In this document: positions 36,188 to 44,636 of the stretch, piece by piece
Position numbering within the stretch: the stretch's first letter is position 1
How the letters are laid out: every line of letters begins with the position of its first letter
Source of the DNA: Streptomyces sp. NBC_01717
Lineage (GTDB): Bacteria; Actinomycetota; Actinomycetes; Streptomycetales; Streptomycetaceae
Length of the DNA stretch: 64,000 nt
Direction of reading: 5' to 3'
Assembly (NCBI RefSeq): GCF_036248255.1
Contig: NZ_CP109178.1
Coordinates: 3,224,001 to 3,288,000 of the forward strand
Made by a program: the position numbers and the translations under genes
The notes under the pieces: generated by a model
Told to the model about the DNA's origin: nothing
The model's input: only the letters and a program-made list of their open reading frames with translations
The model's database searches: none

Positions 36188-38635
36188 GTGACCGCCCGCA
36201 AGCCGCCCCGCAAAGCGCCCGATCCCACCGCGACCCCATCAGCGCCCGCTGCCGAGCCGACCCCAGCGGCCAAGCCGGCCCCCGCAGCCCCAGCGGCCAA
36301 GCCGGCGCTCTCAGGCTCCACGGCCACTGCGGCGCCCTCGGCACCCGCGGGCTCGGCGACCTCCCCGGCCAAGCGGAAGAAGACAGCGGAGAAGCGGGCC
36401 GATGCCTCTCCCCCGCGGCCGCGGCGTGGCGGCGGTCGCGGCCTCCGGCCGGTGCGGGCCCTCGACGACGCCGACCGGGGACGGCTGCTCGCCGGTGAGC
36501 ACCATGCCCCGCACGACCTCCTCGGCGCGCACATGGTCCGCGGCGGTGTGGCGATCCGGGTGCTCCGTCCGTACGCGCGATCGGTGACCGTGCTCGCCAA
36601 GGGGCTGCGGACCGAGCTGCACGACGACGGCGACGGCCTCTTCTCCGGTCTGCTGCCGATGCCGTCCGTCCCCGAGTACCAACTCCTGGTCGGCTACGCG
36701 GACAACGAGATCGAGGTCCATGATCCGTACCGCTTCCTGCCCGCGCTCGGCGATCTCGATCTGCATCTGATCGGCGAGGGACGGCACGAGGAGCTGTGGA
36801 CCGCCCTCGGCGCACAGCCCATGGAGCATCAGGGGGTCGCAGGTACGCGGTTCACCGTCTGGGCGCCCAATGCCCGCGGTGTGCGGGTCATCGGGGACTT
36901 CAACTACTGGGACGGCACGGGCTTCCCGATGCGTTCGCTCGGTTCCACCGGGGTCTGGGAGCTGTTCCTCCCCGCGATCGGCGAGGGTGCGCTCTACAAG
37001 TTCGACATCTGCCGCCCCGACGGTACGCACACGGTGCGCGCCGACCCGATGGCCCGCCGCACCGAGGTCCCGCCCGCCAACGCCTCGGTCGTGACGGCCT
37101 CGCACCATGAGTGGCAGGACCAGGAGTGGATGGCGCACCGCGGGGACGTACCCGTGCACGAGGCGCCGTTGTCCGTGTACGAGGTGCATCTGCCGTCCTG
37201 GCGGCCGGGACTCACGTACCGCCGGCTCGCCGAGCAACTTCCGTCCTATGTAAGGGATCTGGGGTTCACACATGTGGAGCTGATGCCGGTCTCCGAGCAC
37301 CCCTTCGGCGGCTCCTGGGGCTATCAGGTAACCGGCTTCTTCGCCCCGACGTCGCGCATGGGCACCCCTGACGACTTCCGGTATCTGATCGACGCGCTGC
37401 ACCGGTCCGGCATCGGCGTCATCGTCGACTGGGTGCCCGCGCACTTCCCGCGCGACGACTGGGCGCTCGCCGAGTTCGACGGCCGCCCGCTGTACGAGCA
37501 CTCGGACCCGGCACGCGCCGCGCACCCCGACTGGGGCACGCTCGAGTTCGACTTCGGTCGCACGGAGGTGCGCAACTTCCTGGTCGCCAACGCCACTTAC
37601 TGGTGCGAGGAGTTCCACATCGACGGACTGCGGGTCGACGCCGTCGCCTCGATGCTCTACCTCGACTACTCGCGCGAGGACGGGGGATGGTCTCCGAACG
37701 AGCACGGCGGCCGGGAGAATCTGGATGCTGTCGCCTTCCTCCAGGAGATGAACGCCACCGTGTACCGGCGCAATCCTGGCGTCGTCACCATCGCAGAGGA
37801 GTCCACCGCCTGGGACGGCGTCACGCGCGCCACCCACCATGTCGGCCCCGGCGGCTTCGGCGGGCTCGGCTTCGGACTGAAGTGGAACATGGGCTGGATG
37901 CACGACTCCTTGGAGTACGTCTCGAAGGAGCCGGTGCACCGCAAGTACCACCACAACGAGATGACCTTCTCGATGGTGTACGCCTACAGCGAGAACTACG
38001 TGCTGCCGATCTCGCACGACGAGGTGGTGCACGGCAAGCGGGCGCTGGTGTCGAAGATGCCCGGCGACTGGTGGCAGCAGCGTGCCAACCACCGGGCGTA
38101 CCTCGGTTACATGTGGGCGCACCCGGGCAAGCAGCTGCTGTTCATGGGGCAGGAGTTCGCCCAGGGCGCCGAGTGGTCGGAGGGCCACGGCCCGGACTGG
38201 TGGCTGCTCGACCCGTCGTACGCGGCGGAGGCGGACCACCGGGGCGTCCGGGACCTGGTGCGTGAGCTGAACGCGGTGTACACGGCGACACCGGCGCTGT
38301 GGCAACGGGACACCGTCCCCGAGGGCTTCGCCTGGGTCGACGGCGGAGCCGCCGAGGACAATGTCTTCGCCTTCCTGCGCTTCGACGCGGGCGGTGCGCC
38401 GCTGCTCGCGGTGTCGAACTTCTCGCCGGTGGTCCGTCACGAGTACCGGCTGGGCGTGCCGTCGTCCGTGTCCGCCTGGGCGGAGGTGCTCAACACGGAC
38501 GCGGCACGGTTCGGCGGCGGAGACGTCCTCAACCCGGATCCACTGAAGCCGGAGTCCGTCGCCGCCCACGGTCACCGCACGAGCGTCCAGCTCACTCTGC
38601 CGCCGCTGGCGACGATGTGGCTGAAGCCGGTGTGA
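36188..38635 (+). CDS. glgB: 1,4-alpha-glucan branching enzyme GlgB
   Basis: An 815-residue GH13_9 enzyme that introduces alpha-1,6 branches in the GlgE product. An unusual Ala/Pro/Lys-rich N-terminal tail of about 80 residues (with the repeat PAAKPA) precedes the N1 and CBM48 domains (TRFTVWAPNARGVRVIGDFNYWDG). The barrel has VIVDWVPAHFPRDDWAL, GLRVDAVASMLYLDY with the nucleophile Asp, TIAEESTAWDGVT with the acid Glu, and ISHDEVVHGK. The start is a GTG, with GAGGAGG 9 nt upstream. It is last of the glgE operon. Its final 44 nt overlap, tail to tail, the end of the helD-like gene on the other strand. Confidence 0.95.
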   Translation: MTARKPPRKAPDPTATPSAPAAEPTPAAKPAPAAPAAKPALSGSTATAAPSAPAGSATSPAKRKKTAEKRADASPPRPRRGGGRGLRPVRALDDADRGRLLAGEHHAPHDLLGAHMVRGGVAIRVLRPYARSVTVLAKGLRTELHDDGDGLFSGLLPMPSVPEYQLLVGYADNEIEVHDPYRFLPALGDLDLHLIGEGRHEELWTALGAQPMEHQGVAGTRFTVWAPNARGVRVIGDFNYWDGTGFPMRSLGSTGVWELFLPAIGEGALYKFDICRPDGTHTVRADPMARRTEVPPANASVVTASHHEWQDQEWMAHRGDVPVHEAPLSVYEVHLPSWRPGLTYRRLAEQLPSYVRDLGFTHVELMPVSEHPFGGSWGYQVTGFFAPTSRMGTPDDFRYLIDALHRSGIGVIVDWVPAHFPRDDWALAEFDGRPLYEHSDPARAAHPDWGTLEFDFGRTEVRNFLVANATYWCEEFHIDGLRVDAVASMLYLDYSREDGGWSPNEHGGRENLDAVAFLQEMNATVYRRNPGVVTIAEESTAWDGVTRATHHVGPGGFGGLGFGLKWNMGWMHDSLEYVSKEPVHRKYHHNEMTFSMVYAYSENYVLPISHDEVVHGKRALVSKMPGDWWQQRANHRAYLGYMWAHPGKQLLFMGQEFAQGAEWSEGHGPDWWLLDPSYAAEADHRGVRDLVRELNAVYTATPALWQRDTVPEGFAWVDGGAAEDNVFAFLRFDAGGAPLLAVSNFSPVVRHEYRLGVPSSVSAWAEVLNTDAARFGGGDVLNPDPLKPESVAAHGHRTSVQLTLPPLATMWLKPV

Positions 38636-40817
38636 TGACTCCGAGCCGCTGGGTGGCCCGGGTCAGCGCCACATAGAGATCGTTGGGGGTCATCAGCGCG
38701 GGCGCGACGACGAGAACCGTGTCGAACTCCAGGCCCTTGGCCTGGCGCGGGTCGAGCAGGACGACGGGCCGGTGCAGATCCAGCGGCCCGTCGTCGAGTC
38801 CGGTGAGTTCCGCGTGGAGCTCGCGCGGGGCGATGACGGCGAGCCTGCCCTCCGCCGGGGCCTCCGCCTCGGCGAGCCCGGCCACGTCGGCGAGCGGCAG
38901 GGTGCGCTCCCAGGGCCGTGCACCGGTGGAGCGGATGGAGCGCGGGGGTTCGAAGGCGGGGTCGGTGGCCCGGCGCCGCTCGGCCGCGTACTCCATGATC
39001 TCGGCGGGCGTACGGTAGTTGACCCCGAGCCGGGCCAGCTGCCAGCGGTCCTGGACGTGCGGTGCGAGGATCTCCTGCCAGGAGTCGCAGCCTGCCAGGT
39101 CGCCGGTCTGGGCCGGGTCGCCGACCAGGGTCATCGAGCGGGTCGGGCTGCGGCGCATCAGCAGCCGCCAGGCCATGGCCGACAGCTCCTGCGCCTCGTC
39201 GACGATGATGTGCCCGAACGCCCAGGTCCGGTCGGCGGCGGCGCGCTCGGCGGCGCTGCGGTGGTCGGCCTCCTCCTGACGCTCGGCGAACCGTTCGGCG
39301 TCGATGATGTCGTGCGCCGCGAGGACCTCGGAGGCGTCCTCGTCGATGTCCTCCTTGTCCTCGAACTCGTAGGTACGGGAGGCGTACGAGACGTCGAGGA
39401 CGCCCTGCGCGTAGGCGATCTGACGGGCCCGCTCGGCCTCGGCGGCGGCCCGGGCGGCGGAGTCGTCCGCACCGAGGAGCTCGGCGGCCTCGTCGAGGAG
39501 GGGCACGTCGGCGGGTGTCCAGGCGGCCTTCTTCGCGCGCCGGAGCAGCTCGGCGTCGCCCTCGGCCAGATGCGTGGGCTCCTCCAGATAGCCGGCGAGG
39601 AACTCCTGCGGGGTGAGCGGGGGCCACAGGGAGGTGATGGCGGCGTGCACCTCCGCGCTGGCGGCGATGCCCTTGCCGAGCTGGGCGATGTCGTCGGGGC
39701 CGAGGAAGTTCGGGCCGCCGTAGGGGTCGGCGCCGATGCGGTCGGCGAGTTGCGTGGTGAGATCGTCGATGATCCGGAAGGCGAAGGTGGGCAGGGCGAG
39801 GTTGTGCGGCAGCCCGGTCTCCCGGGCCTTGTGCCTCGCTTCGACCGCCATGTCCCAGTCGAGGATCAGCTCCCCGTCGTCGTGCGCGATGACGATCGGC
39901 TCGCCCTTCTCGGGCACCTGCTGCTGGTCCCGTACGGCCTCGGCCAGTACGCCGGCCATGTCCGCCCGGCCCTTGACGGCGGCGGCCGCCGGGCTGTCGG
40001 TGCCGGTGGCGTGCACGCCGGGGAACAGTTCACCGACCGTCGACAGCAGTACGCCGGTCTCCCCGAGCGAGGGCAGCACGTCGCCGATGTAGCCGAGGAA
40101 GGCCGGGTTGGGCCCGACGATCAGCACGGCCCGCTTGGCGAGCTGCTCGCGGTGCGCGTACAGCAGATACGCCGCCCGGTGCAGCGCGACCGCGGTCTTC
40201 CCGGTGCCCGGCCCTCCCTCGACGACGAGCACCCCGCGCTGCGGGGCGCGGATGATGTGGTCCTGTTCGGCCTGGATGGTCGAGACGATGTCGCCCATCC
40301 GGCCCGTGCGGGCGCTGTTCAGCGCGGCGAGCAGCACCTCGTCGGCGTCGTGCGACTCGTATCCGGTGCGGGTGGTGTCGGCGAGATCCATGATCTCGTC
40401 GTGCAATCCCGTGACCGTGTGCCCCTGCGTGGTGATGTGCCTCCTGCGGCGCAGACCCATCGGTTCATATCCGGTCGCGAGATAGAACGGCCGCGCGACG
40501 GGGGCCCGCCAGTCGATCAGCAACGGGGTGCGCTCGGCGTCGTCCCGCCGGATTCCGATGCGCCCGATGTGGTACGTGACTCCGTCGCGCCTGTCGATCC
40601 GTCCGAAACAGAGTCCCGTGACGGCCGCATTCAGCGAGGCAAGTGAGGCGGAGTGCTCGGCGACGCCGATATCGCGCTCCACCCGCGCCTGCCGACCGGT
40701 GCTGAGCTGCGCGATCGTGGTGCGCATGGCGGCTTCGGCCGCTGCCCGGAGCTGGTCGAGCCGCTCGTGGGCGAGGGAGACGAATTGCTGCTCCTGCCGC
40801 ATTTCCTCGGTTGACAA
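38592..40817 (-). CDS. helD: HelD-like RNA polymerase-associated UvrD-family ATPase
   Basis: A 741-residue superfamily 1 ATPase. An N-terminal coiled-coil arm of about 75 residues is followed by the HelD-type segment VTYHIGRIGIRRDD...PLLIDWRAPVARPFY. Walker A is EGGPGTGKTAVALHRAAYLLY, motif II is IIVDEAQELS, motif III is LVGDPAQTGD, and the C-terminal motifs include LDPRQAKGLEFDTV and YVALTRATQRLGVI. The long insert between motifs Ia and II (about residues 290-500) is typical of HelD proteins, which dislodge stalled RNA polymerase from DNA and in some actinobacteria protect from rifampicin. The start is a TTG with AGGAG 7 nt upstream. A plus-strand promoter overlaps this start codon. Confidence 0.88.
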   Translation of the reverse strand: MSTEEMRQEQQFVSLAHERLDQLRAAAEAAMRTTIAQLSTGRQARVERDIGVAEHSASLASLNAAVTGLCFGRIDRRDGVTYHIGRIGIRRDDAERTPLLIDWRAPVARPFYLATGYEPMGLRRRRHITTQGHTVTGLHDEIMDLADTTRTGYESHDADEVLLAALNSARTGRMGDIVSTIQAEQDHIIRAPQRGVLVVEGGPGTGKTAVALHRAAYLLYAHREQLAKRAVLIVGPNPAFLGYIGDVLPSLGETGVLLSTVGELFPGVHATGTDSPAAAAVKGRADMAGVLAEAVRDQQQVPEKGEPIVIAHDDGELILDWDMAVEARHKARETGLPHNLALPTFAFRIIDDLTTQLADRIGADPYGGPNFLGPDDIAQLGKGIAASAEVHAAITSLWPPLTPQEFLAGYLEEPTHLAEGDAELLRRAKKAAWTPADVPLLDEAAELLGADDSAARAAAEAERARQIAYAQGVLDVSYASRTYEFEDKEDIDEDASEVLAAHDIIDAERFAERQEEADHRSAAERAAADRTWAFGHIIVDEAQELSAMAWRLLMRRSPTRSMTLVGDPAQTGDLAGCDSWQEILAPHVQDRWQLARLGVNYRTPAEIMEYAAERRRATDPAFEPPRSIRSTGARPWERTLPLADVAGLAEAEAPAEGRLAVIAPRELHAELTGLDDGPLDLHRPVVLLDPRQAKGLEFDTVLVVAPALMTPNDLYVALTRATQRLGVITPASATSSPAAAE

Positions 40818-40840
40818 TTCAGCTCCTGGCGCGATAGGGT
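40811..40840 (+). promoter_or_regulatory. Near-consensus housekeeping promoter, divergent from helD
   Basis: TTGACA (40811-40816) and TAGGGT (40835-40840) are 18 nt apart, very close to the Streptomyces HrdB consensus. The -35 overlaps the TTG start codon of helD on the other strand. The predicted start point is near 40847. Confidence 0.8.
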
Positions 40841-40846
40841 ACGTTT

Positions 40847-40945
40847 ATTGAAGTTCTCCGTGCATTACAGTCCGTACACACACGGAACTATTCAATATAG
40901 GCGAAGAAATACCCCGGCCGTCAATTCGGACCGGGGTTTTTGTTT
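40847..40945 (+). ncRNA. Candidate small structured RNA of about 100 nt
   Basis: The transcript from the promoter at 40811-40840 would begin at the foot of a long stem. UAUUGAA (40846-40852) pairs with UUCAAUA (40891-40897), GUUC (40853-40856) with GAAC (40885-40888), and CGUG (40859-40862) with CACG (40881-40884), with only 2-nt bulges and an 18-nt loop. A short single-stranded stretch leads to an intrinsic terminator at 40911-40945. The segment is far less GC-rich than its surroundings. It may be a free small RNA, or an attenuated leader of the TIGR04222 gene 390 nt downstream. The frame across it is open but has no ribosome binding site. Confidence 0.55.
40911..40945 (+). terminator. Intrinsic terminator with T-tract
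   Basis: ACCCCGG (40911-40917) pairs with CCGGGGT (40931-40937), extended by CCG/CGG after a one-base bulge, and runs into TTTTTGTTT. Classical T-tract terminators are rare in this window, which makes this one stand out. Confidence 0.8.
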
Positions 40946-41237
40946 GCGTCCAGGAGCCGTCTGGCAAAGAGCCGGCACGCCTGTCGCATCGAGCGCGGCA
41001 CGCAGCCGGACGGGATGCCCCGCCGCAAGGCGGCGTCGCTCCGGAGAGCCGCGCGCCCGGAGTCGGGCACCCGGATGCGGTCGATGGCCGGGACCGCGAG
41101 CACGGGGGAAGCGAGCAGCTCGGAACAAGCTCAGAAAAAGCTCTGAAATCAGGCTTGTTCGGATTGACCGTGCTTCACGCGGAGATACCCCTCGCATACG
41201 CACATTCATCCGGAGCACGTCCGGATCGGGGGCTGCC
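40946..41237 (+). other. Non-coding stretch upstream of the TIGR04222 gene
   Basis: No gene is convincing. A dyad GAACAAGC (41123-41130) with GCTTGTTC (41153-41160), with A-rich sequence between the arms, and a TTGACC hexamer at 41164-41169 mark a probable promoter region for the downstream gene, but a -10 could not be placed. Confidence 0.4.
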
Positions 41238-42185
41238 ATGTGGACCACACTCACGCTCATCGACGCCGCGACCGCGCTGGTCGCTGCCACCGCCTGTCTG
41301 GCCCTCTCCGGTCGGCGGCTGCTGCCGTGGCGGCGCCGGGAACGCGCGCCCGACTTGAGTCCGTACGATGCGGCGTTTCTGGCGGGCGGACCGGAGCGGG
41401 TGGTGGAGACGGCGCTCCACGCCCTGTGGGGCAGTGACAACAACGTCGTGATCGGGTCGGGTGGACGGCTGCGGTTACCCGAGCCGTGGACGGGACCCGA
41501 GCATCCGGTGGAGCGTGCCGTGGTCGAGAAGTGGCGGACCTCCGGCTCCACGACCCCGACGCTGCTGCGGGTACGGGCGGTGCGGGCCGTGGCCGTACGC
41601 GAGATCGGCGACCGGCTCGTCTCGTACGGGCTGCTGATGGCCCCGCGACGCGCCCTGGCCCGTCTGTACGCCGCGCGTGGATTGGTCGTCGTGGCGTGCG
41701 GCACAGCGGTCCTGGCCGCCCTGGCCGTCCCGCAGGGGCTGCGGCGGACGGCACCGTTCATCGCGGTGACAGCCTGCTGTCTGGCCGTGCGGGTGCTGTG
41801 CCCGGCGCGGGGTCCGCTCACCCCGGCGGGCCGCCGTCGCCTCGCAGCGATACGCACCAGCGAGCCGTGGGCATCGGCCGCGCTCGGGGCCGTGGTGTTC
41901 GACGGCCGCAGCGCGCTGCCGGGTGAGCGCCGGCGCTCCCGGCGGTGGGACGGGGGCGGGGGCCGTCTGCCTTCGGTGGGCCGGATGCTGGTCAAGTACG
42001 GAAAGGCACTGGATCCGGACCACGACGACCGGAGCCCGGACAGCGGCGGCACCGGCAGCGACGACAGCTCCTACGGATCCGGCAGCTCCCACGACTCGTA
42101 CGGCTCCCACGGCTCCTCGTACGACGGAGGAGGTCACCACCACAGCTGCGGCGGTGGCAGCAGCTGTGGCGGCGGAAACCACTGA
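41238..42185 (+). CDS. TIGR04222-type membrane protein with Gly/Ser/His/Cys tail
   Basis: A 315-residue protein of unknown function. A first hydrophobic helix (residues 5-27) is followed by a cytoplasmic region with the family signature SPYDAAFLAGGPERVVETAL, two central hydrophobic helices (about 150-195), and a final 55 residues rich in Gly, Ser, Tyr and Asp that end in a HHHSCGGGSSCGGG run. The clustered His and Cys could bind a metal or form thioether or disulfide links; similar tails are seen in TIGR04222 proteins. The ATG has GGGGG about 6 nt upstream. It is convergent with trxA, 10 nt apart. A possible RNA-based control element lies upstream. Confidence 0.75.
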   Translation: MWTTLTLIDAATALVAATACLALSGRRLLPWRRRERAPDLSPYDAAFLAGGPERVVETALHALWGSDNNVVIGSGGRLRLPEPWTGPEHPVERAVVEKWRTSGSTTPTLLRVRAVRAVAVREIGDRLVSYGLLMAPRRALARLYAARGLVVVACGTAVLAALAVPQGLRRTAPFIAVTACCLAVRVLCPARGPLTPAGRRRLAAIRTSEPWASAALGAVVFDGRSALPGERRRSRRWDGGGGRLPSVGRMLVKYGKALDPDHDDRSPDSGGTGSDDSSYGSGSSHDSYGSHGSSYDGGGHHHSCGGGSSCGGGNH

Positions 42186-42195
42186 GCGTCGTGGC

Positions 42196-42537
42196 TCACA
42201 CCTTCTCGAGCACGTCCTCCAGCTCCTGAAGGAGCCTGCGCTTGGGCCGGGCGCCCACCATCGACTGCACCGGCTCGCCGGACCGGAACACCATCAGGGT
42301 CGGCATCGACAGCACCCCGTACCGGCTCGCGATCCCGGGGTTGTGGTCGACATCGAGCTGGACGATCTTGATGCGCCCGGCCTCCTCGGCGGCGATCGCG
42401 CTGAGCACGGGGGCGAGTTGGCGGCAGGGTCCGCACCAGTCGGCGGTGAACTCGACCAGTACGGGGAGCTCGGCCCCCAGCACCTCTCCGTCGAAGGTGG
42501 CGTCGGTGACCTCGGCCACGCCCTCTGCATGAATCAT
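42196..42537 (-). CDS. trxA: Thioredoxin
   Basis: A 113-residue cytosolic thioredoxin that reduces protein disulfides. The active site is WCGPC within VEFTADWCGPCRQLAPVL, the buried Asp is in the second strand region, and the cis-proline loop is SMPTLMVF. The length is normal. The ATG follows the merR stop by 3 nt with GGGAGG before it, so the two genes are one operon and the regulator probably controls the thioredoxin in response to a thiol or redox signal. A thioredoxin reductase is not in the window. Confidence 0.95.
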   Translation of the reverse strand: MIHAEGVAEVTDATFDGEVLGAELPVLVEFTADWCGPCRQLAPVLSAIAAEEAGRIKIVQLDVDHNPGIASRYGVLSMPTLMVFRSGEPVQSMVGARPKRRLLQELEDVLEKV

Positions 42538-42540
42538 CTG

Positions 42541-42945
42541 TCATCCTCCCAGTTCACAACGTGGTTCCGGGCCGCCAGGAAGCTCGGCCGCGGCCTCCAG
42601 CTCGGCCCTCGCGAGCTCCGCGCCCACCTGGGCGCGGACCGACTGGAGCTGCTCGATGAGCGAGTCGAGCTCGCCGAGCTTGCGCCGGTAGACGGCGAGC
42701 GAGGCGGGGCAGGCGTCACCGGCCGGGTGGCCGGCGCGCAGGCACTCGACGAACGGCCGGGTCTCCTCAAGATCGAACCCGAAGTCCTGCAGGGTCCGGA
42801 TCTGCTGCAGCAGACGCAGATCGTCCTCGTCGTACGTGCGGTACCCGTTCACGGCCCGCCGCGCAGGCAGCAGTCCGCGTGACTCGTAGTAGCGCAGAGT
42901 CCGCGTCGTCGTCCCGGCCCGCTCGGCCAGCTCCCCGATTCGCAT
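42541..42945 (-). CDS. MerR-family regulator of trxA
   Basis: A 134-residue regulator. The N-terminal winged helix is canonical (IGELAERAGTTTRTLRYYE, GYRTYDEDDLRLLQQI), followed by the dimerisation helix (KLGELDSLIEQLQSVRAQVG). Two cysteines, in VECLRAG and GDACPAS, sit where metal- or thiol-sensing MerR proteins carry theirs. I chose the ATG at 42945; the predicted start point coincides with it, so the mRNA should be leaderless. A dyad in the 20-nt promoter spacer fits autoregulation by DNA untwisting. The next gene is trxA, so a disulfide or electrophile signal is likely. Confidence 0.88.
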   Translation of the reverse strand: MRIGELAERAGTTTRTLRYYESRGLLPARRAVNGYRTYDEDDLRLLQQIRTLQDFGFDLEETRPFVECLRAGHPAGDACPASLAVYRRKLGELDSLIEQLQSVRAQVGAELARAELEAAAELPGGPEPRCELGG

Positions 42946-42951
42946 GCTTCG

Positions 42952-42983
42952 ACCGTAAAGGTTGACGCGGGCGTCAAGGCAAG
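42952..42983 (-). promoter_or_regulatory. MerR-type promoter of merR-trxA
   Basis: On the minus strand, CTTGCC (42983-42978) and TACGGT (42957-42952) are separated by 20 nt, longer than the usual 17-18. The spacer holds the dyad TTGACGC/GCGTCAA (42962-42968, 42971-42977). This is the classical MerR layout, in which the activator shortens an overlong spacer. The start point falls on or next to the ATG. Confidence 0.6.
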
Positions 42984-43054
42984 CACTGGGCTCTCCTCTC
43001 CCAGCCATTCCTTCAACTGCCCTTTACATTCAAGAAGTTAAGAGTGCATCGCCA

Positions 43055-43083
43055 TTGACGCCCCCCTGGCGTGCACCTACAAA
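43055..43083 (+). promoter_or_regulatory. Promoter of the GH16 gene
   Basis: TTGACG (43055-43060) and TACAAA (43078-43083) are 17 nt apart. The predicted start point, near 43090, falls inside the palindrome that follows. Confidence 0.6.
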
Positions 43084-43088
43084 AAGCG

Positions 43089-43102
43089 TGAGAGCGCTCT
43101 CA
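43089..43102. promoter_or_regulatory. LacI-type operator on the GH16 start point
   Basis: TGAGAGCGCTCTCA is a perfect 14-bp palindrome with the central CG typical of LacI-family operators. It resembles the CebR box of streptomycetes (TGGGAGCGCTCCCA) with two symmetrical changes. Its position over +1 suits a repressor. Confidence 0.6.
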
Positions 43103-43151
43103 AGACAGGTACCTCGTTCCCGTTCCCCCGCCCCCACCGGAGAGGTGTTCC

Positions 43152-44636
43152 TTGAACGCGAGCCGCATCCACCTGCCCGCTCACTCCCCCACCTCCACTC
43201 CCCGCAGACGCACCACTGCACTCGCCGCGCTGACCGTGATGGCCCTGGTCCTGGCCGGGCTGGCCACCGTCCTCGGCTCCGGGTCCGCTCGCGGCGCCGT
43301 CCCTCCGGCTCCTGGCTGGGACCTGAAGTGGAGCGACGACTTCAACGGCGCCGACCGCTCCCTCCCCTCGGCCGCGAACTGGCAGATCGACACCGGCCAC
43401 GCCTACCCCGGCGGCCCCGCGAACTGGGGCACGGGTGAGATCCAGAACTACACCGCCAGCCCCGACAACCTCAGCCTCGACGGCAACGGCAACCTCCGGA
43501 TCACCCCGCTCCGGGACGGTGCGGGCAACTGGACCTCCGGCCGGGTCGAGACCACACGCTCCGACTTCAAGGCCCCGGCGGGCGGCACTCTGCGCATCGA
43601 GAGCCGGATCCAGATGCCGAACGTCACCGGTAACGCGGCGCTCGGCTACTGGCCCGCGTTCTGGGCGCTCGGCTCCCCGTACCGTGGCAACTACTGGAAC
43701 TGGCCGGGCATCGGCGAGTTCGACATCATGGAGAACGTCAACGGGATCAACTCCGTATGGGGCGTGCTGCACTGCGGCGTCAACCCGGGCGGCCCGTGCA
43801 ACGAGACGAGCGGCATCGCCAGCAACCGGGCCTGCCCCGGCGCCAGTTGCCAGTCGGCGTTCCACACGTACACGTTCGAGTGGGACCGCTCCGTCTCCCC
43901 CAATGTGCTGCGCTGGTACGTGGACGGCCAGCAGTTCCACTCCGTCTCCCAGAGCCAGCTGGACGCCGGCACCTGGGCTGCAATGACCGAGCACGCGGGG
44001 TACTTCATCCTGCTCAACCTCGCGATCGGCGGCGCGTTCCCCAATGCGCTGGGCGGCAGCACCCCCACCGCGGAGACCGTCCCGGGCCGCCCCATGCTCG
44101 TCGACTACGTCGGTGTCTGGACCAAGGGTGGCGGGGGCGGCACCGACCCGACCGACCCGCCGTCCGGCTCCTCCGACCTCACGCTCCGCTCCGGTGGCGG
44201 TCTCGGCGCGGCTGAGGCGGCCGGCTCGGCCGCCACGCTCGCCTCGGCGGGCGGCGCCAACTACGACGGCACCCCGCACAGCCCGCAGACCTTCACCGCC
44301 TCCGGCATCACCCGGACGTACAACGGCGGGTCCACCCAGTTCGACCTGTTCGTCGACGCCGGTACGACCGTCGCCAACGGGCAGCAGGTGAGGGTGAGTT
44401 ACGACCGTACGGGCGACGGGACCTGGGACCGGACGGAGACGTACAACTACTTCCCCACCGACCCCGTCCCCGGCTACGAGCACTACACGCAGGGCAAGGG
44501 ACTCATGACCTCGACCGGGAGCCAGGGCAATCTGGTGAACGGCAAGGTCAGGGTCGAGATCTGGAACGCCATCGGCAACGGCTCCAGCACGGTCGGAGTC
44601 GGTAACCAGTCGGTCGTCCACATCCCGTTCGGCTGA
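43152..44636 (+). CDS. Secreted GH16 endo-beta-1,3-glucanase-like enzyme
   Basis: A 494-residue exported enzyme. A long signal peptide (Arg-rich at 18-20, hydrophobic to about 46) precedes a GH16 domain of about 270 residues with the catalytic motif GEFDIMENVNG, in which the two Glu are nucleophile and acid/base. Laminarinase-type landmarks are WSDDFNG, WPAFWALGS and FHTYTFEWD. A Gly/Thr/Pro linker leads to a 150-residue beta-rich C-terminal module of unknown type (from SSDLTLRSGGG), perhaps carbohydrate-binding. The TTG start has GGAGAGG 6 nt upstream. It would hydrolyse beta-1,3-glucans such as fungal cell wall. A LacI-type palindrome overlaps the predicted transcription start. Confidence 0.92.
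   Translation: MNASRIHLPAHSPTSTPRRRTTALAALTVMALVLAGLATVLGSGSARGAVPPAPGWDLKWSDDFNGADRSLPSAANWQIDTGHAYPGGPANWGTGEIQNYTASPDNLSLDGNGNLRITPLRDGAGNWTSGRVETTRSDFKAPAGGTLRIESRIQMPNVTGNAALGYWPAFWALGSPYRGNYWNWPGIGEFDIMENVNGINSVWGVLHCGVNPGGPCNETSGIASNRACPGASCQSAFHTYTFEWDRSVSPNVLRWYVDGQQFHSVSQSQLDAGTWAAMTEHAGYFILLNLAIGGAFPNALGGSTPTAETVPGRPMLVDYVGVWTKGGGGGTDPTDPPSGSSDLTLRSGGGLGAAEAAGSAATLASAGGANYDGTPHSPQTFTASGITRTYNGGSTQFDLFVDAGTTVANGQQVRVSYDRTGDGTWDRTETYNYFPTDPVPGYEHYTQGKGLMTSTGSQGNLVNGKVRVEIWNAIGNGSSTVGVGNQSVVHIPFG

What the first reader, a model, noticed from the sequence alone, without database searches (positions are those of the whole stretch)
40811..40945. Candidate small RNA fired divergently from the helD start codon
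Seen: TTGACA-N18-TAGGGT on the plus strand, its -35 overlapping the TTG start of helD; a predicted start point at the foot of a 7+4+4 bp stem (40846-40897) with 2-nt bulges; then an intrinsic terminator with TTTTTGTTT. Together these make a self-contained unit of about 100 nt, markedly AT-richer than its surroundings. It could be a free regulatory RNA, possibly linked to RNA polymerase recycling by HelD, or an attenuator for the TIGR04222 gene. I know of no described RNA with this layout.
Basis: partly seen in the sequence, partly recalled or inferred. Interest (0 to 1): 0.75.

Follow-up and report, generated by a model that had tools for sequence, protein, structure and literature searches.

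The report
Antisense RNA facing the helD promoter
In Streptomyces, the gene for HelD, a protein that frees stuck RNA polymerase, appears to have two promoters firing at each other, one making the gene's message and one a short antisense RNA, much like a rifampicin-sensing switch recently found in Bacillus.

Summary
The unit is real and strongly conserved, but it is not an isolated "divergent sRNA". The plus-strand promoter (TTGACA-N18-TAGGGT) and the helD promoter face each other, 53 bp between -10 boxes. The predicted roughly 100-nt RNA is antisense to the helD leader.

The layout occurs once in the 10.2-Mb genome, in strict form at 124 of 141 Streptomyces helD loci read, in 8 of 17 family genera sampled, and beside helD in 80 of 80 named loci. 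The TIGR04222 gene is next to none of those 80; trxA is in 64.

Closest known: B. subtilis helD (NAR 2026), with convergent promoters, about 90-nt antisense RNA and rifampicin induction by transcriptional interference. That paper says actinobacterial helDs use another element (RAE). None was found here, and the genome has a separate helR beside an RAE-like site. Interference control is the best explanation. No transcript data were seen. Rifampicin responsiveness is untested, and a published statement on S. venezuelae speaks against it.

The parts
40811..40816 (+). -35 (TTGACA) of the antisense promoter; shares bases with the helD TTG start codon (40817-40815, minus strand)
   Evidence: TTGACA in 124 of 124 strict rows, TTGACAA in 123 of 124, in frame with helD in 124 of 124
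40823..40826 (-). GGAG, probable Shine-Dalgarno of helD, inside the spacer of the antisense promoter
   Evidence: sequence; CTCC on the plus strand in 117 of 124 rows, CNCC in 124 of 124
40835..40840 (+). -10 (TAGGGT) of the antisense promoter, spacer 18
   Evidence: spacer 18 in 116 and 17 in 8 of 124 strict rows
40847..40945 (+). predicted antisense RNA of about 100 nt (start inferred from the promoter, end from the terminator)
   Evidence: no transcript data
40857..40886 (+). central hairpin (arms 40857-40862 and 40881-40886) between the two inferred start points; on the other strand it would be a hairpin at the 5' end of the helD mRNA
   Evidence: folds; covariation by inter-species chimeras, z 10, 0 of 5000 permutations
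40894..40899 (-). -10 (TATATT, plus strand AATATA) of the probable helD promoter; helD start point inferred near 40887
   Evidence: AATATA in 124 of 141 loci within the strict layout
40919..40924 (-). -35 (TTGACG) of the probable helD promoter, spacer 19; its TTG is in the terminator loop of the antisense RNA
   Evidence: only TTGNNN-N16-19-TANNNT on the minus strand of 40818-41240; CAA at spacing 17-19 in 125 of 129 rows, five other triplets tested there in at most 3
40911..40945 (+). intrinsic terminator of the antisense RNA (stem 40911-40937, U tract to 40945)
   Evidence: in 108 of 124 relatives some 8-nt window 22-53 nt after AATATA has at least 5 T
38592..40817 (-). helD, class II (actinobacterial) RNA polymerase recycling motor; the name SCO5439-type rests on recalled synteny
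   Evidence: NCBIfam HelR_2 676 bits and HelD_MYCSM 610 bits, both below their cut-offs of 1100 and 1051; HelD chain 6yxu_H, E 8e-160
41238..42185 (+). TIGR04222 gene, incidental neighbour, not part of the unit
   Evidence: not found at 80 of 80 named loci

Best explanation
A two-promoter switch for helD. Shown by sequence and comparison: a plus-strand promoter whose -35 is built into the helD start codon; a minus-strand promoter-like site for helD that faces it, 53 bp between -10 boxes; a predicted RNA of about 100 nt from the first, antisense to the helD leader, ending at a terminator that straddles the helD -35. Inferred: RNA polymerase leaving the antisense promoter runs over the helD promoter and keeps helD low (transcriptional interference). 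When polymerase is stalled at start sites, or becomes scarce, the busier antisense promoter is hit first, the helD promoter is freed, and HelD is made to release stuck polymerase. The RNA itself is mainly a by-product or reinforcing part of this switch. Whether rifampicin is the physiological signal is open.
For: One match of the double motif in 10.2 Mb, the site itself, with 0 for the control. Strict layout in 124 of 141 Streptomyces helD loci. Asked without requiring a helD -35, a CAA stands at spacing 17-19 from AATATA in 125 of 129 rows, although the terminator stem around it differs between clades. The antisense -35 is TTGACA in 124 of 124 strict rows. The distance between -10 boxes is 49-55 bp in 110 of 124, then jumps by about one DNA turn (61-66 bp in 12 of 124), with 72 and 91 once each and none at 56-60; promoter geometry seems constrained. 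Layout, distance (their B. subtilis motif: 45-55 bp between -10s; 39 bp between start points against about 41 inferred here) and RNA size (about 90-94 nt plus terminator) resemble the experimentally tested B. subtilis helD switch. No other TTG-type promoter on the minus strand of 40818-41240. An antisense TTGAC promoter near the helD start recurs in 14 of 59 helD loci of other actinobacterial families, 0 of 59 on the sense strand, mean 0.05 in 300 shuffles.
Against: No transcript or start-point data were seen. In 66 of 124 strict rows the helD -35 is only TTGCGN, and in 37 of 124 TTGACA or TTGACG; spacers of 18-19 bp are long. So the helD promoter rests mainly on its -10 and spacing. 17 of 141 loci miss the strict layout: 7 have a changed -10, 10 have no match (L031 unreadable, others lack CAA or AATATA or have a long insert). 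Taken singly, only about half of the hairpins stand out from shuffles (about 63 of 124 at stem z above 2; about 69 of 124 at fold z below -2). PMC8655204 (passage) says that of five helD genes in S. venezuelae only SVEN_6029, the RAE-linked one, is induced by rifampicin, which speaks against a rifampicin response here. The paired layout was found at 0 of 59 helD loci outside the family at the thresholds used.
Confidence: 0.68

Rival explanations
1. The RNA acts after transcription as a cis-antisense RNA: its 5' hairpin is the complement of the hairpin at the 5' end of the helD mRNA, the two kiss and form a duplex that is degraded or blocks helD expression.
For: About 41 nt of overlap between the two inferred 5' ends; a covarying hairpin lies in the overlap. 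Non-Watson-Crick pairs favour neither strand (36 G-T against 39 A-C), as expected if both RNAs need the hairpin.
Against: The overlap stops about 20 nt short of the helD Shine-Dalgarno (40823-40826), so the ribosome site is not covered. In B. subtilis the effect is ascribed to promoter interference, and mutating the antisense -10 raised helD transcription also in vitro.
Confidence: 0.15
2. A trans-acting small RNA (base-pairing with other mRNAs, or binding RNA polymerase) that merely lies next to helD.
For: Self-contained promoter, structure and terminator; an AATATACGC block between the two hairpins is conserved.
Against: It is beside helD in 80 of 80 named loci; its conserved blocks coincide with the helD promoter boxes and the helD start region. 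RIP-seq in S. coelicolor, under the conditions tested there, named only scr3559 and scr0792 as polymerase-associated RNAs (PMC11077062 passages).
Confidence: 0.1
3. Plain insulation: a two-way terminator between trxA and helD with an unimportant promoter.
For: trxA, on the helD strand, was found in 64 of 80 named loci (72 of 80 had more than 700 nt of flank there), in 59 of these 64 within 53-125 nt of the AATATACGC block; the terminator stem is near-symmetric in many species.
Against: Does not explain TTGACA in every strict row, the promoter-to-promoter geometry or the covarying hairpin.
Confidence: 0.05
4. Attenuator or leader of the downstream TIGR04222 gene.
For: Orientation in the window only.
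Against: That gene was found at 0 of 80 named loci and, within about 1.5 kb, at 1 of 30 loci, the window's own.
Confidence: 0.02

Closest known systems
B. subtilis helD / ashelD two-convergent-promoter rifampicin alarm (PMC12802891, Nucleic Acids Res. 2026)
   Same: helD gene; sense and antisense promoters face each other; -10 boxes 45-55 bp apart in their motif (53 here), start points 39 bp apart (about 41 inferred here); antisense RNA about 90 nt (about 100 predicted here) ending at an intrinsic terminator.
   Different: Other phylum and other HelD class (II, not I). Antisense spacer 18 and sense spacer 19 in the window (antisense 19, sense 17-18 there). Here the antisense -35 is built into the helD start codon and the helD -35 into the terminator loop, and a covarying hairpin lies between the promoters. 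Rifampicin response not shown. The paper states that not all helD genes have facing promoters and that actinobacterial ones feature RAE.
Rifamycin-associated element (RAE) control of helR, rgt and others in actinobacteria
   Same: Controls class II HelD proteins in the same phylum.
   Different: RAE is a 19-bp palindrome in the 5' leader (PMC10719064 passages); none lies at this helD. This genome has an RAE-like site at a separate rgt-like and helR pair.
scr0792 and scr3559 (Ms1-like) of S. coelicolor
   Same: Small streptomycete RNAs tied to RNA polymerase; scr0792 is about 85 nt.
   Different: Other loci; they associate with polymerase, whereas this RNA was not named among such RNAs (PMC11077062 passages). 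No Rfam match here.

Membership tests
helD two-convergent-promoter switch (B. subtilis type) | two promoters of housekeeping type facing each other upstream of helD | tested here: met
   (by sequence only)
helD two-convergent-promoter switch (B. subtilis type) | distance between -10 boxes about 45-55 bp | tested here: met
   53 bp in the window; 110 of 124 strict rows 49-55 bp, 14 of 124 longer
helD two-convergent-promoter switch (B. subtilis type) | antisense RNA of about 90 nt ending at an intrinsic terminator | tested here: inconclusive
   promoter and terminator predict about 100 nt; no RNA data
helD two-convergent-promoter switch (B. subtilis type) | antisense promoter stronger and faster to escape than sense promoter | not testable with these tools
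   only a hint: -35 is TTGACA in 124 of 124 strict rows for antisense, against TTGACA or TTGACG in 37 of 124 for sense
helD two-convergent-promoter switch (B. subtilis type) | induction of helD by sub-inhibitory rifampicin | not testable with these tools
   published statement for S. venezuelae helD genes other than SVEN_6029 is negative (PMC8655204 passage); which of them is the orthologue was not tested
RAE-controlled helR | 19-bp palindrome in the 5' leader | tested here: not met
   recalled consensus GGGGCTTGCNNCAAGCCCC, up to 2 mismatches: 9 strand-wise matches at 5 sites in the genome, none at this helD; the control pattern gave 5, so matches with 2 mismatches are near chance
RAE-controlled helR | protein passes a HelR model | tested here: not met
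   motor_HelR 424 against 750 bits, motor_HelR_2 676 against 1100; another gene of the genome, L145, passes motor_HelR with 1277
any Rfam release 15 family | match at the curated gathering score | tested here: not met
   38000-44000, E up to 1: only anti-hemB, 18.8 against 49.5 bits

The most novel reading that the evidence does not exclude
Two phyla with different classes of HelD control helD through the same device, two face-to-face promoters with a roughly 90-100-nt antisense RNA, reached separately or kept from an ancestor. In Streptomyces it senses polymerase stalled or lacking at promoters in general rather than rifampicin, the two promoters must lie on one face of the DNA (distance changes by about whole turns), and the antisense RNA and the helD mRNA begin with complementary hairpins whose pairing adds a second layer.
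Probability: 0.25. Interest if true: 0.82.

Novelty: new variant of a known kind. Interest (0 to 1): 0.68.

Why it matters
If true, antisense-promoter control of helD is not a Bacillus peculiarity but a more general way for bacteria to measure the health of their RNA polymerase without any regulator protein. It would also suggest how RAE-less helD genes of Streptomyces are controlled, which the 2026 paper does not treat in the sections I read, and would offer a test locus in most Streptomyces (124 of 141 helD loci read). No paper describing it turned up in my searches of the held library; the supplementary tables of the 2026 paper, which list two-promoter sites in many genomes, could not be read and may contain it.

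Tried and rejected
Attenuator for the TIGR04222 gene: contradicted by neighbourhood. Known Rfam RNA: none. RAE: not at this gene. RNAalifold on ungapped blocks of equal length gave no consensus structure (0.0 energy in four length groups), probably because the stem shifts by 1-2 nt between species; I replaced it by the chimera test. Model R1 holds only 7 terminator pairs, so it is mostly a sequence profile. Its matches in 16 genomes outside the family start at model position 28 or later, mostly in the 3' terminator part, with about 20-30 bits, and were not counted as members; the tool's stricter filters may also have lost weak true ones. The G-U against A-C test, and comparing fold z-scores of the two strands, did not decide which RNA carries the hairpin. 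The search for the paired layout outside the family found none at the threshold used, although the antisense half recurs. HelD in viral contigs: nothing kept. One search, meant to show the regions upstream of the genome's other helD-like genes, picked the wrong frame in three of four (L143, L145, L147) and was not used, so those regions were not examined for the layout. One open frame from 40848 to 42185 runs through the RNA and terminator into the TIGR04222 gene; I take it as chance in GC-rich DNA, untested.

Caveats on counts: 9 of 150 genomes had no helD at E up to 1e-150. 61 of 66 representatives (below 80% identity, from 129 sequences) entered the chimera test. L031 could not be anchored.

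Papers: PMC12802891 abstract, passages and sections 36, 37, 45, 47, 48, 50; passages only of PMC8655204, PMC10719064, PMC11077062, PMC8388888, PMC3282765; listing only of PMC4731013, PMC12709188, PMC9952706. Recalled, from no call: RAE consensus, the link of this gene to SCO5439 by synteny, the closeness of S. gardneri to S. venezuelae.

Full report
WHAT IS THERE. The -35 box is built into the start of helD: read on the minus strand, TTGACAA is the start TTG followed by TCA, and GGAG (40826-40823) is a well-placed ribosome site. Among 124 strict relatives (the window included), TTGACAA is kept in 123, the site is in frame with helD in 124, and CNCC is kept in 124.

WHAT WAS MISSED. The same stretch read on the minus strand holds TTGACG (40924-40919)-N19-TATATT (40899-40894), the only TTGNNN-N16-19-TANNNT in 40818-41240 on that strand. 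So the probable helD promoter lies inside the small RNA gene and points at the RNA's promoter. The two -10 boxes are 53 bp apart and the inferred start points about 41 bp. The antisense RNA crosses the whole helD promoter and stops at a terminator whose loop region carries the helD -35. No start point has been measured; both are inferred.

IS IT CHANCE? The combined pattern occurs once in the 10.2-Mb genome, at this place, and its control not at all. Of 150 Streptomyces genomes, 141 have this helD at E up to 1e-150. I fetched the upstream region for all 141 (30, 111). 124 of 141 carry the strict layout, 7 a relaxed one, 10 none; of the 10, one could not be anchored (L031), and L046, L052 and L135 show the rest but no CAA. 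Without asking for the helD -35, 125 of 129 rows with the antisense promoter and AATATA have CAA at spacing 17-19, and five other triplets tested there occur in at most 3. Since the terminator stem around that triplet differs between clades, a promoter box is the simplest reason. A covariance model (R1) matched in 55 of 121 genomes of a family draw, one of them only in part, in 8 of 17 genera, and full-length in no genome outside the family among 246 of a class draw (strict filters). They include S. gardneri and S. violaceoruber.

THE HAIRPIN. Between the two start points lies a hairpin. Its best stem starts 16-18 nt after the antisense -10 in 75 of 124 rows and ends 6-8 nt before AATATA in 80 of 124, with very different stem sequences. 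Singly, about half stand out from shuffles. Together they do: in 61 representatives the species' own arms pair better than arms from two species (7.09 against 5.28; z 10; 0 of 5000 permutations; two groups taken separately 0 and 1 of 3000). G-T and A-C mismatches are about equally common (36 and 39), so the hairpin may serve either transcript or both, or the DNA.

GEOMETRY. The distance between -10 boxes is 49-55 bp in 110 of 124 rows, 61-66 in 12, 72 and 91 in one each, and never 56-60. In the overlapping named set, 70 of 78 readable loci are 49-54, one is 60 and 7 are 62-66. The longer ones have extra letters in the loop part that mostly differ from each other, so they seem to have arisen several times; no tree was made. 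A step of about one DNA turn suggests that the two polymerases must keep their relative face. This is a suggestion, not a tested claim.

HOW IT MOST LIKELY WORKS. In B. subtilis, helD is controlled by two facing promoters: the stronger antisense promoter makes a roughly 90-nt RNA and keeps the sense promoter low; low rifampicin stalls polymerase at the busier antisense promoter and lets helD rise. Reporter, in vitro and Northern data are given there (PMC12802891: abstract, passages and sections 36, 37, 45, 47, 48, 50 read). There, too, a terminator beyond the antisense RNA is thought to serve the neighbouring gene from the other side, as the one here may for trxA in relatives. The Streptomyces unit has the same parts in the same order and nearly the same distances. 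I therefore propose transcriptional interference as its mode of action (0.68), with pairing of the complementary hairpins as a possible second layer (0.15 as the main mode). Shown: the boxes, the distances, conservation and covariation. Inferred: promoter use, relative strength, interference, and signal.

RESULTS AGAINST. PMC8655204 (passages) says that of five S. venezuelae helD genes only the RAE-linked SVEN_6029 is induced by rifampicin. If the S. venezuelae orthologue of this gene has the unit, as S. gardneri does (a near relative, from recall), rifampicin is not its signal, or not at the dose used. In 66 of 124 rows the helD -35 is only TTGCGN. Outside the family the full pair was found at 0 of 59 helD loci, though an antisense TTGAC promoter near the helD start occurs in 14 of 59, from four families, with 0 on the sense strand and 0.05 expected by shuffling. 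RIP-seq in S. coelicolor named only two polymerase-associated RNAs (PMC11077062 passages), which speaks against a polymerase-binding role. The simple promoter and terminator scan saw nothing in this region.

RELATION TO RAE. The 2026 paper states that actinobacterial rifampicin-protection genes, helD included, feature RAE, and cites this as a case without facing promoters. The RAE consensus is from my recall; allowing two mismatches, it is absent at this helD. An RAE-like site with two mismatches lies over the called start of an Rgt-like glycosyltransferase (529 bits, cut-off 800), followed on the same strand by a gene that passes the HelR model with 1277 bits. The control pattern gave as many as 5 matches in the genome, so that site is credible for its place rather than for its letters. 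If it is real, one genome holds both kinds of control on two different HelD genes.

NOVELTY. Not found in the held library under SCO5439, SCO5438, scr5438-5440, HelD with small RNA, with RAE, with convergent promoters, or with antisense, rifampicin and S. coelicolor; of the three papers naming SCO5439 I saw passages, none on this RNA. The S. coelicolor sRNA survey of 2011 is not held, and supplements could not be read, so earlier listing of the transcript or of the promoter pair is possible. I file it as a new variant of a known kind: same device, new phylum and HelD class, with added features.

Noticed in passing
G000:C1:7455465-7459142 (loci L145, L151): An RAE-like palindrome (two mismatches to the recalled consensus) over the called start of an Rgt-like glycosyltransferase (NF000354, 529 bits, cut-off 800), followed by a gene that passes the HelR model: probably the rifamycin operon of this genome, separate from the window's helD.
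   Followed up: partly
17 of 124 rows, such as L019, L030, L032, L034, L036: In these Streptomyces the antisense RNA begins with GGCCCC-loop-GGGGCC-TT, an early terminator-like hairpin that could stop the RNA before it reaches the helD -10.
   Followed up: no
L189-L191, L199, L202, L235, L239, L241-L243, L256, L262, L265, L271: An antisense TTGAC-N17/18-TANNNT promoter near the helD start in four other actinobacterial families. Read by eye, some also show ACTATA or ATTATA (helD -10-like) further on: 42 bp in L239, 50 bp in L235, 70 bp in L241.
   Followed up: partly
window 41238-42185: The TIGR04222 membrane protein gene sits between trxA and helD here, while trxA is next to the unit in 64 of 80 named relatives: probably an insertion in this lineage.
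   Followed up: partly
L064, L080, L095, L141: Four Streptomyces loci keep a TTGACA antisense promoter but lack the AATATA box and show a different downstream part.
   Followed up: no
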